From contig NW_004457343.1 of the NCBI RefSeq assembly GCF_000313135.1, positions 469,321 to 533,320 of the forward strand: 64,000 bases of DNA. The letters are read 5' to 3'. The first letter of the stretch is position 1. Each line of letters starts with the position of its first letter. The translations under genes and the position numbers were made by a program. This DNA comes from Acanthamoeba castellanii str. Neff (Eukaryota > Discosea > Longamoebia > Acanthamoebidae). The notes beneath the pieces are model-generated. The model ran no database searches and was not told where the DNA came from. It was given only the letters and a program-made list of their open reading frames with translations. This document shows positions 53,110 to 62,358 of this stretch, piece after piece.

Positions 53110-54929
53110 TCAGGGGAAGGCCAGGGCCAGGTCCCAGAGGGCGAGGTTGTGGTCGAAGGCGGTGACGAGGAGGTCGTCGGCCACGGCAGTGTAGAGGTGG
53201 CGCAGCGGATCGCAGTCCCCGGGCGGATGGAACACCTTGCGCTCGCAGGTGGCAAAGTCGTGCACCACCACACACTTCTGGCCCATCGAGTAGATGTTGC
53301 CCGTCATGATGGCCTTGCGCCCGTCGGCGTAGGCGAAGCTGGCCTCGCCCGACCGCAGGGAGAGCTCCCTGTGGGGCGGCTGCGGCGACGCGATGTGCAT
53401 GCCGAAGACGGTGGGGCACCACACGGCGTGGTGGTTGTAGGAGACGTCGCTGCTGGCCCAGTTGAGCTGCAGGCTTCGGCACTCCTCCAGATCGCTCCAC
53501 CGAAACACGTGTGTCGAATCCACTGGAAAGCATGGCACGAGCGTGGCGTGAGCGAACTGCGACACCACACACACACACACACACCCACACACACACCCAC
53601 ACATACACACACACACGCACACACACGCACACGCACACAACACACAACACACATACACGACACGGAGTGATGCTGGTAATGCGTACACGGCATGGCGGAG
53701 CAGAGGAAGGTGTCGGAGACGTCGTCCTGGTCCATGTGCCAGCGCTGGACCCGCTCGGAGTTGAAGAGCGCGGTCGGTATAAGTTCCTTGACGACGTCGC
53801 CCGTGCGGAGGTCGACCACCAGCAGGCTCGTGGCGCCGCCGATGACGAGGCAGTCGTGGTGACTCACCATCCCCGAAGCACAGTGCTCAGGTGCTGAACG
53901 TGTGTGAGAGCCCGAAGTGAGCCTTGATGTGTCTGTCGTGTGTCGTGTGTGTTGTGCGTGTCGTGTGTGTCGTGTGTGTCGTGTGTGGTTTGATGCGTAC
54001 GAATGGCAATGGTCGATACGAGCTGCGCTCTCGCCATGTCGTACACGGAGACCTTGTCGGGCAGGGCGCCGCAGCTGACGGCGAGCCACGCCTTGGGCTG
54101 GTTGACGGCGAATTCGATCTCGCCCTCCGCCTCGCGGACGGTGAGCTTCGCCGACGGGTCGCCCTTCCGGAAGGCGCACACGCCGCTGTTGCCCGCCACC
54201 ACCAGCCAGTCGCGCGTCTGCTTGAGCGCCGGCATGCGGTAGAGGTTGCCGTGGCGCGAGTGCGCCGCGCCCAGATCGTAGGTCGTGGCCTGTTCGAGCC
54301 TGCGCTCGCCGCGTCGCAGCACCAGCGAGTGGACCTTGCCCCGGTCGCCCGACGCGTAGATGATGCGCGTCCGCGACTTGACCCCGCCGCTGCTGTCCAC
54401 CATCAGGTTGCACCCGAAGGGCTTCCGCTTCATACTCACCGGAAGCTGGGCGCGATAGGGCTCGATTTCATCGATGCGGGTCCACCGGATATCGCGAATG
54501 TAGTGCTCTCTCCAACGACCCTGCAGCCTGCGCCGAATTAAAATCAAAAATATTAGGATAATATCAATATTTAAATAAAATATTAAAATAAAGAACGAAA
54601 TGATTTAAAAGAATGAAGGCGGCGGGGGGGGGGGCGCACGAAGGGTCGGGAAAGATAGGGGGCTGGTCCTGGAGCTCGCGAAAGGGGGAGCAGGTGAAGC
54701 GCCAGCGGTGGAGGTCACGCCACACGCTCTCGGTGATGCAGTACAGGCGGCGGCAGGTGGCCCCGACGCGCGCCACGGCCGCCACTGCCTCCTCGCTGCA
54801 GTGCGGTTCGCGCCGGGCGCTGCGCCACTTGGGCTTACCCGGCCGCTGCACCGGCGACCCCGCACTGCGGGAGGGGCTCAACAAGAAGGAGACGACATAC
54901 AACAGCAGCTCGTCGGGCAGCTCCTCCAT
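53110..54929 (-). CDS. F-box protein with C-terminal beta-propeller-like region
   Basis: Exons from ATG 54929 (MEELPDELLLYVVSFLLSPS) to TGA 53112-53110. The F-box is the N-terminal LPDELL ... GATCRRLYCITESVWRDLHR. Exon 1 ends PPIFPDPS and joins in phase to LQGRWREHYIRDIRWTRID, a linker common after F-boxes. The rest has repeated hydrophobic strands (DWLVVAGNSGVCAF, AWLAVSCGALPDKVSVYD, DCLVIGGATSLLVVDLRTGD, DDLLVTAFDHNLALWDLALA) consistent with a WD-like propeller. F-box proteins bring substrates to SCF ubiquitin ligases. The frame is open upstream of the ATG (…EILKPEGKFEAY) with a possible acceptor near 54967, so an upstream exon cannot be excluded. Confidence 0.82.
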
Positions 54930-55036
54930 GTACGCCTCAAACTTGCCCTCTGGCTTCAAAATCTCTGCGATGAGATGATCTCCTTTCGATTTGAAACAAC
55001 AAAACGAAAGGTTTATTTCTTTTTTATTTTTATTAT

Positions 55037-57687
55037 TTACACGTTGTCACCGCCACACCGCCGGTGGCTCCCCCCGATCTGTGCCTCGAGACTGGCCGTG
55101 ACCTCCTCCATGGAGGGCCTCTTGTCCTGATGCTATGAGTGCACCAACATAAGGGCGAGCGCCCCGCGTCCAAGTGAGAATGAAACAAACCAATGCGGTG
55201 GTGTGGAGCGTTAAGGTTACCTTGTGCCAGCAGCGCTGCATGAGCTGCTTGAATTCGGGCGGACAGTCGGAGGGCACATCGGGCCGCTTGCCGTCGAGGA
55301 TTTCCAGCGCGACGCTCATGAAGGTCTGGTCGGCGTAGGGCACCTTGCGCGTGAGCACCTCCCACATCACGATGCCGAAGCTGCGCACACGAGAGCCGCC
55401 ACAGGCATCAATCAGCGTCATCGCGCATTGATGGATTATGGAGTCGAAGTCGACGTCAACACACACGTACCTGTAGACGTCGGCCTTTTCGCTGTAATTG
55501 TCGCCTTTGATGATCTCCGGGGCGGTCCAGCAGGGCGTGCCGCACCGGGTCATCGTCGCGTTCTCCTCCTTGATGCGGGCAAACCCAAAGTCGGCCACCT
55601 TCACGTTCCACGCTTCGTCCACCTGTTTTTACATCATTAGCGTCGTTGGTCGTGTCGTGTCGTGTCGTGTGTTATATAAGAGATCGGTAGTGTGTGCGTG
55701 CGGTACCAAAAGGTTAGAAGACTTCAGATCGCGGTGCAGAATAACCGGCTCGAGAGAGTGAAGATAGGAGATGGCGAGGGAGGCCCCATGCAGCATGCGC
55801 AGGCGCTGCTGCCAGGGCAGCTTGAGCGTCGCGTCGGAGAGGAGCGTGCGCAGAGAGCCCCGCTTCACAAACTCCATCACGATACACAAATTGGGGCTCC
55901 GCACACACGCCCCTGTGTCGAGTTGCGTGTGAGAGTCTGCGATGGCCCAGGTGCGCCAGGTTGGGTGTGTGCGGTGTACCGATGAAGAGGACGATGTTGG
56001 GGTGGTGCAGCTCGGAGAGGAAGGCCACTTCGGCGCGGAACTCGAGCATGAGTCGCTCGGTGAGCTTCTGCTTGATGAACCGCTTCACGGCCACCTCTAC
56101 GCCCTTCCACTTGGCCATGTAGACCAAGCCGTATGACCCGGTGCCCACTTGCTCTCCCAGAGCCAGGTCCTCGTAATCAATGATCCACCTGTCATTCCAC
56201 ACATACAGGTCACACACGGCGCACCAGGGCACAAAAAGCGAAAGCGAAAGCGAAAGTTATTGCATTGATTGTATGACGAAAAGAACTGAAGAGAGTGGCT
56301 GCGGTACCGACAGAGGTTGGCGCTGGTAAGGAACACCTCCTTGTTGTCCAGCAGGGCATAGGTGGAGGAGCCTGGGGAGGAGTCGGAGGTGGGCGGCGTG
56401 AAGTGGTCCTCTTTTGCTTTTTTGGCCTCGTCTCCGTATGCCTGCACAACTGCAGTTCCGCCAGCCCCACATGTTTCCTGGGCATTCGTAGCGAGTTAGG
56501 GTTAGGAAGCCTGGTACACGCACACGCACACGCACACGCACACGCACCAACGGCCAAGTAAGACTTACCGCGTAAGACGTGTCCCTGCGCGAAGAACGCA
56601 AGAAATCGATGGGCGCACGCATGGAGTCCGACGAGTGCCCCAGGGAATCACTGGCGCGTATCGAGGCCAAAGAAGACGAAAAAGAAGTGTGCGAGCCTGG
56701 AGACGTCTTGGGGAAGAAGCGCGCCTCCAGACCCTCCACTTTCAACTCGAAGAATAGCTCCTGGTCTACATGGACCCATCAGAAAAGGGTGAGTCCGTGC
56801 CCCCTTTAAAGCTACTGCGGGTATGGTTACCTGTGGATTGGAGAAGGTCGAGCGTCCCAGAGGGTTGGAGCCGCTTGATGAGCGCTCTGTCGGTGGCGGT
56901 GGCATCGAGGTCCCTCCGCAGTGAGTCTGTCACCAGCACTTGGCCACCCTGTGCCACGGAAGCCAGTTTGGCCGCACACTTTACCGCCACGCCTGGTTGT
57001 CGGTAGTGAGAAGTTAGAGGTTGTGTGTCGTGTGTGTGTCGTGTGTGTGTGATGTGTGTGTGTGTGTGTGTTACGACAGGGACGTACCAGCGTATTGCGT
57101 AGAGCGGTAGACAGGTTCTCGCACGACCTTGGGCCGTCCAAGGTGGAAGCCCATCCGTACACGAGGCCCACGAAACAGAAGGCCATCGCTCGCAATGCCC
57201 CACTCCTCCGCCGCAGCTGGGCACTTGAGAAGCTCCTGTCACCACCGGTCGTGAGCTTGAGCTGTGCCACCCAGCGGAACGAATGACGCGCACCTCCGGC
57301 CACTCTGCCTTGAGCAGCGCGTTCTGCACGTCGGTGGCCCACCGGACGGCATCGATCGACTTCTGGAAGGCGACACAGAACGAGCCCTCGCCGTGGTTCC
57401 CGATGGCAGTCAACACTGCCTCGTATCCTGCATGGACGAGACTCAATACGTCAGCGCATCTCGACTCAATTTTGCCACGAGCGTTGCTGCAGAGTGCAGA
57501 CGGAGAAGATGACGTGGAGCCAGGCGCACCTCCGTGCTTTTTCATGAGGTCGCGTAAGATGTCGTTGTGGATGAGGGTCGCATCGCGCATGGCCGCAGCG
57601 TTCCAATCCCACAAGGCGTCGCCGTTGGCTATGTCCGAGAAGCCTATCACCACCTCTCCACGTGGCGGCTTGGTACCGCCGGCGCCC

Positions 57688-57759
<72 letters not shown>

Positions 57760-60700
57760 ATGCTGGTGAGCGGCCGTCAAGTTTTACAGAGAGTGAGAGT
57801 GGAGCAGCGTACGCTGTGGGCGATCGGTCTCAATCTCCGACAGCTCCTGGCCGTCTTCGCCGTAGCCGCCGGAACTATCGCTTCGCGCACCGCCGAGGGA
57901 GGCGTGCGGCGGAGGGCGGAACGAGGTTGTGCTGCTGATCGGGGACGAGCCCGTCGATGGGGACTCGTCCTCGACAAGGGACTCCAGACGGGTCATGACC
58001 TCGAGGAACGTGGGGCGCAGGCTGGCGTCGGTGTCCCAGCAGTTTCGCATCAGCCCGAGGTAGAGCGCGGGCACCTCCTTCAACTGGTCCTCGTCGACTT
58101 GCGTTGTCGGTCGCATGTCGTCCCTCAGCACACCCACGGCGATCGCAGCCGCGCTATTGTGTCGCCCCAAGTCCGCGTTAGTGACACAAGACCGCACACG
58201 GCAGACGGCACACGGCACACGGCACACGGCACACGGCACACGGCACACGGCACACGGCACACGCACCTGAGATGCTCGTAGGGGTTGCGCCGTGTGACAA
58301 TTTCGAAAAGGACCACCCCGAACGAGAAGATGTCTGCGAGCATATAGTCAACGGCCGGCTGCTCGGCGAGCACCTCGGGCGCGGTCCACGGGATGCTGCC
58401 GATGTGTCTGTCCGACGCCTTGATCTGGTCCTTGAATTTGCCCAGCCCTGACCGCCGCGCATTGCGAGTCTGTGAGCCGTCATTCATTCTTGAAGCACAG
58501 AGCACAGAAGAGCAAGAGGTCATATACCAAAGTCGGACACTTTAACGTTCCACTTGGAGTCCAAGAGCAGGTTGAGGGACTTGAGGTCGCGATGCACGAT
58601 GCCGGACCTGTTGCGAAACGCAAACAAGCCAGGCGGGTCAGCTGTATGTTTACAGGCGGGGTTCGCGACGGCAACGTACGAGTGGAGAAAGTGCATGCCC
58701 TTGGCGGCCCGCAGCGCGATCTTGAGCGACAGTGTCATAGGAATGCAGGGGACCAGGTCGTTATGCAACACCTGACGATCGAACAATGCGTTGGTCATGC
58801 ACACACTTGGCAACGCACACGCACACGCACACGCACGCACCACCGCACACCGGAATGGCGGAGTCACGTACATCGTAGAGGGAGCCGAGGGCCATGTACT
58901 CCATGATGATGCACATGCGCGGCGGCTTGGAGGAAGCGCCCATGAAGAGCACCACGTTGGGGTGCCGCAGGGCGCTCATGACCCGCATTTCCGAGTGGAA
59001 GTTGAGCTTCATCTCCTTGGTGACGAGCCCCGGCGTCATGACCTTCACCGCCACCTCGGTCCCCTTCCACTTGCCCTTGTAGACCTCGCCGAACGAGCCC
59101 TCACCCAGCTTGTGGTCCAGGTCCAGCTCATCGAAGTTAATGTCCCTGGTGTCCACCAACACACACACACCGCACACCGCACACCACACACCACACACGA
59201 CCACACACGAGTCAGGCAAGGCCAGTGAGCTGCGCCTAGGTGTGCACGTGTGCGTACCACTCTTCCTTTTTCTTCTTGGTGACGCGGAATATGAGGAGGG
59301 CGCAGAGCGCCAAGGCGACGAGCAGCACGCATACCACGACGCCCACCACCGGCACGACGATGCCCACCACCATGCCCGTCACGTCGGAACCGCCCGTGCT
59401 GTTTGTTTTAGCTCCGAAGATGCAGTACGGCCCTGTGTATCGCACATATGTGATCAAACAACACCGGCAATGCATGAACACACCTCAATGCTGACGTGGC
59501 AGGGCGGAGAGTGAGCGCGGGGTACCGGCGGCTTCGGGCGCGGTGCACTGGCAGACGCCGGCCTTGCAGTATCCGTTGTTGGAGCAGATACGCTGGTCGG
59601 GCGCCACGCAGGTCATGCGCGTGCCGTTGGACAGAGCGATGCGGCCATCCACCTTGGCATAGATCGGCTCGACGAATGACTTGGCCAGGGCTGCTTCGAT
59701 GGCCTGAACAAGCGCGTAAAAACTTGTGAGAAACACTGCAAACGGGAGGAAGAAGCGAGCAAGAGAAGCCATGGGAGTAGCAGTACCGTGGCGGCTGTAA
59801 GCTGCGAGCTGGTGGGGCTGACGGCACTGGCGGCGAGTTCTTCGTAGCTGTCACCTCCCTTGGCGATGAAGTCCAGCGTGGTGATGGAGTAGTACTGCTG
59901 ATGGTCGAGGATACCCCACTTGCCATCACCGCCCTCCACCCATACGTCCACGACCCGCTGTCCGACCGGTAAGGTAGGGTTCCAAGTGAACTTCAGGCCT
60001 GCCACCTGACGAGATGGCAAGAGGGACTGTCAAGAAGGAGCACGCACGCACAACAGCAAATAGCCGACACATGGCACACAGCACGCAGGACACACGCAAA
60101 ATGAAGTGAAAGTGCGCACCGAGAGGAATCGACCCACGCCAGCGCTGAGGGGCAGGTTGGTCTGGTCGGCCAGGGACACCGAGTTGTCGAGGGCCACGAT
60201 GAGGTCCTCGCCTTTGAGGCTGAACGTGAACAGGAAGTCCCAACCAAAGGGAAACACCACCAGGTACTCGCCGAGCGTGATGCTCCCTTCCCGGAACGGA
60301 CCACTGCACAACCGGGCGTTAGTCCAAGTCCTCGCTTGATATCGAAATGATGGGAACGCACTAGACTGCGCCGCCGTTGACCAGCCCGATCCGAGTTCCC
60401 GTCACGTTGCGGAAGACGTCGGCGATCCAGCCGCCAATGGCACATTCGCCGAAGACGCACGAGTTCTGTGCGTGATGGCTGTGAGCACAGAGACGAGGGA
60501 GGCGAGTCCAAACACCGTACCTGCCACTCAATGTCGATGGCTGCTTTGCCCACGACCTTACTTGAGGAGGCCCGGACTTCGTCCATTTGGGCCAATATCT
60601 GCTCCTGGATCCCGGGGTCGGCGTCGATCGTCGCATCGAGTTGAATGGACTCCCCATTCCACGACGTCAACACTCCATAGTCATCGAAGGTCACGTCGAG

Positions 60701-62358
60701 CCTAAGCGCACAAAAAACCCCAAACCACCACGAGAGAAGATGTCAGAGCCAAGTCGGGCAACTGACCAGCAGAGATCAATGCCTTATTTATGAGCGCATA
60801 CCTTCCTAGCCTTCGGCCAAAGTTACCCGAGGCCACGACGAGCAGAGGTTGAGGACCCGCCTCAGAACCGGCCCAGGCCATGTACTTGACCTGAGGATAG
60901 GTTCCCTGTACGACTTCGTGCACTCCTGCACACACGACGCACACACACACACACACACACACGCACACACACACGAGAGTGTGTGAGACGATGTAAGATG
61001 TACAAGATCACAAGGTAGGTGACCTACCTTCGTCGTTGGCATAGAGGGCGTTGGGGAGTATCACAATGTCGATTCCCGGCACAAAATTGATGACTGAGTC
61101 GAGCACGCTCACGTCGCTCACAGAGACGATGATCTTGTTGACTTGAGTAGTCACAGCAGAGCAGATCAGCACCGTGTACCGCAACGTGTTGTTGGGAGAG
61201 GCAACTCGCACGAACCTCCTTGGTTCAACATGCTGCCCACGGCTTGTAGCATGCCACTCAACTCGCTGAAGGAGTTCTGCGAAGCCAAAAGCAAAAAAAG
61301 CGAGTGAGTGGCGAACTCTCTACCATGCGGTTCCAGGGGTGAACGTACGATCGACCGGGAGTCTTCGAAACGCGTTCCAACTTGAGCCACCAAAGTAGCC
61401 GCGTAGCCAACCTAGAGCGATAGATGTGAGGAACATAAACACGCCACTGGTAGTGTGAAGACGGAGAGGAGCTTGCCTTGTCACCGCTGGCAAAGGTGAA
61501 GATGGCATAGGGCACAATCGTTGCGTTGACCAGTCGGGAGTCATTCTTGCCCACCAGGTTGGCCGCGACGACCTGGGTGTTGGGCACCAGCTGGATGAAC
61601 TTGGCCAACTTCACGACAATTTACACTCGTCAGTGCAAACGGTCTACCACTTGAGATCACTGTGTGAAGGCAAGGAGCGACCTGATCCACGCCACCAAAG
61701 AACTCAAACAGATCGATCTTGATCGCGTCGTAGCCTGCGTCGTACCGAGATCAAACGCCGGTTAGTCCAACAACTGCGCTTTGATCCAAGCCATGCGTAC
61801 CCATCTCATGGTAGTACTGCCCCAGCATCTCCGTGCCGAAGAGCGTCCAAAACACAGAGCCTGTGACGAAAAAAGAAGAGAGACATGAGATTAACTCACA
61901 GCTCGCACAGGTCTGAGAGTTGTCGTGCGTGCCTGTGAAGAGATAGCCGCCGTCAATCAGGAGGGAGTTCTCCACGCTGGCGCGAATGGATTTGATGAGC
62001 GCCGTCCTCCGTGCCACGCCCCCGATGCACGGGAGGTTGGCCGGTTCGGCCACGTAGGAGTCGTTGCCGCTGGTCGCATTGGTAGGGGTGCACGGGCCGT
62101 TGAATTGACCCACGGCCAGCACCTGCGAGTCCGTATTGGCCGTGTGCAACAGGGACAACGTAAACGCCCCTGCAACGTGGTCCAGTGGTCAGTGCGGCGT
62201 GTACCGCTAGACCGGCAAGCACAGAACCAGAAAAAATAGATAGAGAAATTAAAAGAGAAAAGAGGGAATGTACCTCGGCAAAGGTGCGGCAGAATGCACA
62301 GGACGAGGAGACCGCAGAGGAGCAGGCAGGAGCTTGAGTGCTGGGCCTGCTTCTGCAT
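55037..62358 (-). CDS. Transmembrane receptor: pseudo-5'-nucleotidase ectodomain, TKL kinase, cyclase homology domain, TKL kinase
   Basis: More than 25 exons encode roughly 1,600 residues. A signal peptide ([20 protein letters not shown]) is followed by a 5'-nucleotidase fold: [63 protein letters not shown] and VVAANLVG, then the C-terminal domain with [22 protein letters not shown] and [12 protein letters not shown]. Next are an EGF-like six-Cys motif (59570-59410), one TM helix ([20 protein letters not shown]) and a basic stop-transfer. Kinase 1 has [26 protein letters not shown] and [12 protein letters not shown] class III cyclase-like domain has [17 protein letters not shown] and [10 protein letters not shown]. 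Kinase 2 has [27 protein letters not shown] and [10 protein letters not shown]. The product ends [10 protein letters not shown]. Both kinases keep the Lys, HRD and DFG residues. The metal sites of the nucleotidase are replaced. Exon joins were checked at the signal peptide, ectodomain, TM-kinase and C-terminal junctions. Confidence 0.9.
57692..57754. repeat. (CA)n microsatellite in an intron of the receptor kinase-cyclase gene
   Basis: About 31 CA units, in the intron between the kinase 1 tail and the cyclase domain. Confidence 0.97.
58196..58264. repeat. Heptanucleotide repeat (GGCACAC)n in an intron of the receptor kinase-cyclase gene
   Basis: About nine copies of GGCACAC, the first one imperfect. 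Confidence 0.93.

What the first reader, a model, noticed from the sequence alone, without database searches (positions are those of the whole stretch)
59240..62358. Receptor with a catalytically dead 5'-nucleotidase ectodomain that may sense purine nucleotides
The exons of the ectodomain align in order with secreted 5'-nucleotidases (UshA/CD73). The metal-site motifs are all altered. HTNDVH is HTANTD; DAGDQ is DGGYL; GNHEFD is DLFEF; the two later His motifs read SVSDVS and ILPNAL. Yet the C-terminal domain that grips the nucleoside keeps NGG, the FPFG aromatic loop and a GGDSY in place of GGDGF, so an aromatic pair for base stacking is retained. This is what one expects of a domain that binds but does not cleave. 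It is joined through an EGF-like motif and one TM helix to a kinase-cyclase-kinase cytoplasmic part. A pseudoenzyme turned receptor for extracellular AMP, adenosine or a related ligand is a plausible, and as far as I know undescribed, system.
Basis: partly seen in the sequence, partly recalled or inferred. Interest (0 to 1): 0.88.

Follow-up and report, generated by a model that had tools for sequence, protein, structure and literature searches.

The report
Dead-nucleotidase receptor family in Acanthamoeba
An amoeba has turned an enzyme that cuts nucleotides into the outer, seemingly non-cutting part of a family of cell-surface receptors, and a giant virus carries a copy of such a receptor; what the receptors sense is not yet known, but the best guess is a nucleoside such as adenosine.

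Summary
The minus-strand gene 62358-55037 splices cleanly (31 exons, 1574 aa) into signal peptide, 5'-nucleotidase-like ectodomain, cysteine-rich EGF-like piece, one TM helix, kinase, cyclase-like domain, kinase. The window is Acanthamoeba castellanii, judged by annotated protein P0001. In CD73 numbering all six metal ligands, His118 and arginines 40, 354 and 395 are lost, while Asn390, Gly392, Phe417, Phe500 and Asp506 (base and ribose site) are kept. Loss of the phosphate ligands argues for a nucleoside or base rather than AMP. It is not a single gene: 12 loci in this genome carry such ectodomains, nine on kinase-cyclase-kinase parts and three on RasGAP-like parts, none with an intact metal site. 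A 1408-aa protein of Brazilian cedratvirus, a giant virus, shows the window's residue pattern and groups with amoebal and unnamed members. A model of a relative folds like CD73. Kinase-cyclase-kinase receptors were known; my searches found no account of this ectodomain. Ligand and signalling are inferred.

The parts
55037..62358 (-). Whole gene: 31 exons, 1574-aa receptor (signal peptide, nucleotidase-like ectodomain, EGF-like, TM, kinase, cyclase-like, kinase)
   Evidence: spliced by hand from genomic frames, 28 GT-AG and two GC-AG introns; one ORF without internal stop; matches annotated P0001 apart from splice choices, by eye
62274..62358 (-). Exon 1: hydrophobic signal peptide, aa 1-29
   Evidence: hydropathy peak aa 5-33; also at the start of P0021
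60802..62169 (-). Exons 2-9: N-terminal metallophosphatase-like domain without metal ligands (N40, D42, Y104, L136, F137, S239, N261 in place of D36, H38, D85, N117, H118, H220, H243 of CD73)
   Evidence: alignment to CD73 with checked numbering; residue places
61861..61932 (-). GC-AG intron 2
   Evidence: splice agrees with P0021; P0001 splices otherwise
61412..61476 (-). GC-AG intron 5
   Evidence: splice agrees with P0021; P0001 splices otherwise
59787..60701 (-). Exons 10-13: linker helix and C-terminal nucleoside-binding domain (PF02872) keeping N400, G402, F424, F512, D518 (CD73 N390, G392, F417, F500, D506) and lacking R354 (V374) and R395 (Y405)
   Evidence: Pfam E 1.4e-26
59526..59703 (-). 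Exon 14: end of ectodomain and most of the EGF-like cysteine-rich piece (aa 571-602 runs into exon 15)
   Evidence: six cysteines invariant in 12 of 12 aligned ectodomains; Pfam EGF models only below cut-off in this protein
59287..59373 (-). Single TM helix, aa 619-647
   Evidence: hydropathy maximum of the protein, 3.29
57813..59145 (-). Exons 16-20: kinase 1 ([24 protein letters not shown] present) and linker
56831..57688 (-). Exons 21-24: class III cyclase-like domain, degenerate ([13 protein letters not shown] where most of 20 other loci keep the Asn and Arg of VNxAARI)
   Evidence: PF00211 23.1 bits over cut-off 21.9
55037..56188 (-). Exons 27-31: kinase 2 ([24 protein letters not shown] present)

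Best explanation
The gene encodes a cell-surface receptor whose sensor is a catalytically dead 5'-nucleotidase. Shown by sequence and model: the CD73-type fold is kept, metal and phosphate sites are gone, both kinases keep their catalytic motifs, and the cyclase-like domain has lost catalytic residues. Inferred: the C-terminal lobe binds a nucleoside or a free purine or pyrimidine base between F424 and F512, with N400 and D518 on the ribose; because the phosphate arginines are lost, AMP is not the main ligand. Binding would shift the angle between the two lobes, as the large domain rotation does in CD73, and the change would pass through the EGF-like piece and the TM helix to kinase 1 and kinase 2. 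Likely use: sensing nucleosides from food bacteria, dying amoebae or infection. Some paralogues join the same kind of sensor to RasGAP instead.
Against: No binding data exist. Columns invariant among nine reference nucleotidases but without one of these roles are kept on average 65% of the time in the family, and 47 of 72 in the window protein, so five of five is only a modest excess. The clamp is not universal: C94 and C226 have Leu at 417, C234 lacks N390, G392 and D506, C190 lacks G392, P0020 and P0053 have Gly at 390, P0020 has Asn at 506. D36 is kept in 10 of 15, R395 in 4 of 17 and H118 in 3 of 17. The good model is of a relative at 42% identity; the P0021 model, 98% identical to the window, is truncated and poor in its C-terminal lobe.
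Confidence: 0.45

Rival explanations
1. The dead nucleotidase fold is kept only as a scaffold; the receptor binds something else (a protein, a glycan, another small molecule) at a new site, and the clamp residues persist for structural reasons or by descent.
For: Other conserved columns are also well kept (65% on average). Clamp residues vary among paralogues. The paralogues are only 35-47% identical to the window ectodomain, which suits diversified ligands.
Against: Within the same C-terminal lobe of the window protein the two phosphate arginines are lost while the base and ribose residues stay, also in the viral copy. Position 500 changes among F, Y and W but is aromatic in 17 of 17.
Confidence: 0.35
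2. No soluble ligand: the ectodomain serves for dimerisation or adhesion, as CD73 itself dimerises (recalled), and signalling is set by clustering or by contact.
For: Single-pass receptor with EGF-like stalk; the columns of His118 and His243 are among the most variable in the family.
Against: Does not account for the different fates of the phosphate and nucleoside residues.
Confidence: 0.12
3. The ectodomain is still an enzyme, with another metal set or another chemistry.
For: D36 is kept in 10 of 15 and His118 in 3 of 17.
Against: D85, N117 and H220 are 0 of 17 and H38 0 of 15; H243 0 of 14.
Confidence: 0.04
4. Gene-model artefact: a corrected model would restore the metal ligands, or the locus is a pseudogene.
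For: P0001 in the public databases is spliced otherwise at some introns.
Against: The metal-site motifs lie in exons whose splicing agrees with the independently derived P0021. The same kind of losses is seen in paralogues whose ectodomain is read without intron or frame break (C190, C207, C64).
Confidence: 0.01

Closest known systems
Kinase-cyclase-kinase receptors (nucleotidyl cyclases) of Acanthamoeba and Physarum (PMC4053784, PMC4758236)
   Same: Extracellular domain, one TM helix, cyclase domain flanked by two kinases; 66-67 such proteins reported in A. castellanii, 43 in Physarum (passages read). Clarke et al. note the arrangement in amoeba-infecting giant viruses too.
   Different: The word nucleotidase does not occur in the main text of the genome paper; the identity and inactivity of this ectodomain, and its RasGAP-linked sisters, are not described in the passages seen.
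Ecto-5'-nucleotidase CD73 / UshA family
   Same: Two-domain fold, nucleoside-site residues, the cysteines at CD73 353 and 358, near whole-length alignment
   Different: All metal ligands, catalytic His and phosphate arginines lost in the window protein; fused to TM and kinases
Trypanosome receptor adenylate cyclases GRESAG 4.1/4.3 (1fx2, 1fx4)
   Same: Nearest solved relatives of the cyclase-like domain by sequence; named receptor-type adenylate cyclases
   Different: The active-site Asp of GDSF and the Asn/Arg pair are missing here; kinases on both sides; nucleotidase-like ectodomain
Plant extracellular-ATP receptor kinase P2K1 (recalled; start of the abstract of PMC8675005 seen in a search listing)
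   Same: Receptor kinase for extracellular purines; alike in function only if the ligand guess is right
   Different: Legume-like lectin ectodomain; senses ATP

Membership tests
5'-nucleotidase (CD73/UshA) fold family | Two-domain fold with PF02872 C-terminal domain | tested here: met
Catalytically active 5'-nucleotidase | Metal ligands D36, H38, D85, N117, H220, H243 | tested here: not met
   0 of 6 in the window protein
Catalytically active 5'-nucleotidase | Catalytic His118 | tested here: not met
   Phe in the window protein
Catalytically active 5'-nucleotidase | Phosphate-binding R354 and R395 | tested here: not met
   Val and Tyr
Nucleoside-binding C-terminal lobe as in CD73 | N390, F417, F500, D506 | tested here: met
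   All four kept; residue presence only, binding not tested
Kinase-cyclase-kinase receptors of Acanthamoeba | Extracellular domain, single TM, kinase, cyclase domain, kinase | tested here: met
   eight paralogues followed through to kinase 2
Active class III nucleotidyl cyclase | Second metal Asp and transition-state Asn/Arg (roles recalled) | tested here: not met
   GEGSF and VKCAAKLA; but 20 of 20 other loci examined also have GEGSF, so whether Glu serves there is open
Purine nucleoside receptor | Ligand binding that drives signalling | not testable with these tools
   needs purified protein and cells

The most novel reading that the evidence does not exclude
Acanthamoeba has a family of nucleoside receptors built from an inactivated nucleotidase, wired to two alternative outputs (paired kinases, or RasGAP), and a giant virus has taken one copy, perhaps to interfere with or mimic the host's sensing of nucleosides released during infection. 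This would be a purinergic receptor class unrelated to adenosine GPCRs, P2X or plant P2K receptors.
Probability: 0.3. Interest if true: 0.87.

Novelty: new variant of a known kind. Interest (0 to 1): 0.7.

Why it matters
In the passages I saw, the genome papers do not say what Acanthamoeba's 66-67 kinase-cyclase-kinase receptors sense. This work gives a fold, a defined pocket and a short list of ligands to test for nine of them, and shows the same type of sensor on RasGAP-like parts. If nucleosides bind, it is a new class of purine receptor and a clean case of an enzyme becoming a receptor. The giant-virus copy gives a natural probe of what the receptor is good for during infection.

Tried and rejected
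Considered and rejected: gene-model artefact (P0021 agrees with the splicing of exons 1-12); chance similarity; a single freak gene (12 loci; the tool calls such counts lower bounds); all PF02872 genes of the genome being dead: of the further hits, C44 shows GGHDH and VTHIS, read by eye, so at least two of its metal motifs look ordinary. C124:853k and C221:68k were read only in part (C221:68k is partly masked) and not judged.

Led nowhere: two scans of viral contigs for relatives of the cedratvirus protein (no pattern match; 103 pattern matches, none a relative; records near the window's genome may be left out there). The phage collection gave 49 records; the five listed match only in the kinase region, the other 44 were not seen. 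Literature searches on cedratvirus and nucleotidase: (3 of 3 listed; 10 of 8,533 listed; 10 of 40 listed): no row listed was about this ectodomain, but most of the last two were not seen. Pseudoenzyme plus nucleotidase: none. My idea that cyclase decay is special to the nucleotidase receptors holds only in part: GEGSF is in 20 of 20 other loci examined, which were the best matches to the window's own cyclase and whose ectodomains I did not read; the Asn is kept in 17 and the Arg in 18 of those 20, and both are lost in the window (counted by eye). The cyclase region of C190 and C226 is poorly resolved (frame breaks, and Ns in C226), so it is not counted. The three RasGAP-linked ectodomains are not a firm clade (70/63, 47/33). 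A control with SoxB, which has the same fold but another substrate, was wanted and not done. Whether P0053 (75-kb contig) is amoebal or viral was not settled.

Full report
Gene and observation. I spliced 31 exons into one open frame of 1574 aa; 28 of 30 introns are GT-AG and two are GC-AG. The public protein P0001 (A. castellanii Neff, 'protein kinase domain containing protein', 1519 aa, 96% identical) is the same gene; by eye it differs only at splice choices. That the window is A. castellanii rests on this. P0021, an unnamed protein of a JGI source that differs at 10 of 466 residues, agrees with my splicing of exons 1-12, both GC-AG introns included, and then reads into intron 12. I take it for a transcript-derived sequence; that is inference.

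Site residues. Numbering was checked on the CD73 sequence printed: all 14 residues checked fell where expected. Window: D36N, H38D, D85Y, N117L, H118F, H220S, H243N, R40Q, R354V, R395Y; kept N390, G392, F417, F500, D506. The roles of the metal ligands, H118, R40 and G392 are recalled. For the others, CD73 structures show adenine stacked between Phe417 and Phe500, ribose on Asn390 and Asp506, phosphate on Arg354 and Arg395, and a domain rotation of up to 114 degrees between open and closed forms (PMC8677862, passages). So base and ribose contacts are kept, and phosphate and metal contacts are gone.

How strong is this? The nine references are CD73 plus eight proteins that I chose from the 34; one of them, P0027, has itself lost N117, H118 and H243, and P0024 has lost H243. 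The 72 other columns invariant among the nine are kept on average at 65% in the family and 47 of 72 in the window. Five of five is therefore suggestive only. The contrast with 0 of 9 metal and phosphate residues is the firmer point.

A family. Searches of the genome with the window ectodomain and with a distant paralogue gave the same 12 loci: the window, C190, C207, C94, C64, C80, C234, C221, C226, two on C124, and C79. All 12 have the six stalk cysteines and, by eye, a TM segment. Eight paralogues were followed through kinase 1, a cyclase-like region and kinase 2; in C190 and C226 the cyclase-like region is poorly resolved. The two C124 genes and C79 instead continue into a RasGAP-like part: Pfam E 1.9e-10 for C124a, and close matches to it for the other two. 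No locus has an intact metal site. In 14 rows (12 loci plus P0019 and P0020; two rows lack the N-terminus) H38 is 0 of 12, D85, N117, H220 and H243 0 of 14, H118 3 of 14, D36 9 of 12.

Outside this genome. The first two protein searches returned P0001, P0019-P0021 and otherwise mostly bacterial or unnamed nucleotidases and two fish ones. The third added, among others, P0053, P0055 (1481 aa, cyclase above cut-off) and P0054, 1408 aa, named '5'-nucleotidase/apyrase' of Brazilian cedratvirus IHUMI, a Pithoviridae virus (that cedratviruses infect Acanthamoeba is recalled). P0054 has the PF02872 domain and two kinase stretches but no Pfam cyclase match, and by eye a signal peptide and a TM segment. 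Its site pattern is that of the window: 5 of 5 nucleoside residues, none of the metal or phosphate residues compared. On a tree of 26 ectodomains the 17 family members form one group (100/100), and the viral one lies with C190 and three unnamed rows (99/98), beside the window (100/99). This fits transfer from host to virus. In the 17, position 500 is aromatic in 17, position 417 in 15, D506 is kept in 15, G392 in 15, N390 in 14; R354 in 0, R395 in 4. P0021 was left out of these counts as a partial near-copy. H243 fell in a gap in that alignment and is counted only.

Inside the cell. Kinase 1 keeps VA[VI]K, HRD and DFG in the window and in 8 of 8 amoebal paralogues (C80 has SPE for APE; one residue of C94 is unread); the virus has HGD for HRD. 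Kinase 2 keeps them in the window and in 7 of 8; C64 has DFE and HRDLN. The cyclase-like domain is nearest GRESAG4. It has GEGSF where GRESAG has GDSF, as do 20 of 20 other loci examined (the best matches to the window's own domain, not a random set), and the window also lacks the Asn and Arg that 17 and 18 of those 20 keep. C234 and P0055 keep both. I expect output through the kinases, not cAMP; this is inference.

Known or new. Kinase-cyclase-kinase receptors are known: 67 nucleotidyl cyclases in A. castellanii (PMC4053784, passages), 66 of them in this family and 43 in Physarum (PMC4758236, passages); the first paper notes the arrangement in giant viruses. 'Nucleotidase' has 0 occurrences in its main text. 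Nine searches listed no account of nucleotidase ectodomains on these receptors; only titles and abstract starts were seen, and searches listed 10 of 8,533 and 10 of 40. Supplements were not read, and most subscription papers are not in the library.

Verdict. A real, conserved pseudoenzyme receptor family, about 0.93 sure (my estimate); nucleoside as ligand about 0.45. Score 0.7: strong anatomy, a testable pocket, an unexpected RasGAP branch and a viral copy, but no ligand shown.

Noticed in passing
L027, L049, L050, L051, L063, L064 (C124 942400-954000; C79 519300-525600): Three genes join the same dead nucleotidase-like ectodomain, EGF-like piece and TM to a RasGAP-like cytoplasmic part instead of kinases.
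   Followed up: yes
P0054, Brazilian cedratvirus IHUMI: A giant virus encodes a whole receptor of this type (nucleotidase-like ectodomain, TM, two kinases, decayed cyclase), labelled 5'-nucleotidase/apyrase although the metal ligands are absent.
   Followed up: partly
C190, C207, C64 versus window, both C124 genes, C79: The ectodomain is read without introns in C190, C207 and C64 but is cut by 11 or more introns in the window, C124 and C79 genes: large intron loss or gain within one family.
   Followed up: no
L029-L048: All 20 other kinase-cyclase-kinase-type loci examined have GEGSF with an insertion in place of the GDSF of GRESAG, so the cyclase activity of these receptors is itself in doubt.
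   Followed up: partly
P0027: An unnamed protein of the same superfamily, used as a reference, has also lost N117, H118 and H243 and has no PF00149 match.
   Followed up: no
window 54564-55046, - strand: Just downstream lies a frame with MEELPDELLLYVVSFLL, which looks like the start of an F-box protein (recalled motif, not tested).
   Followed up: no
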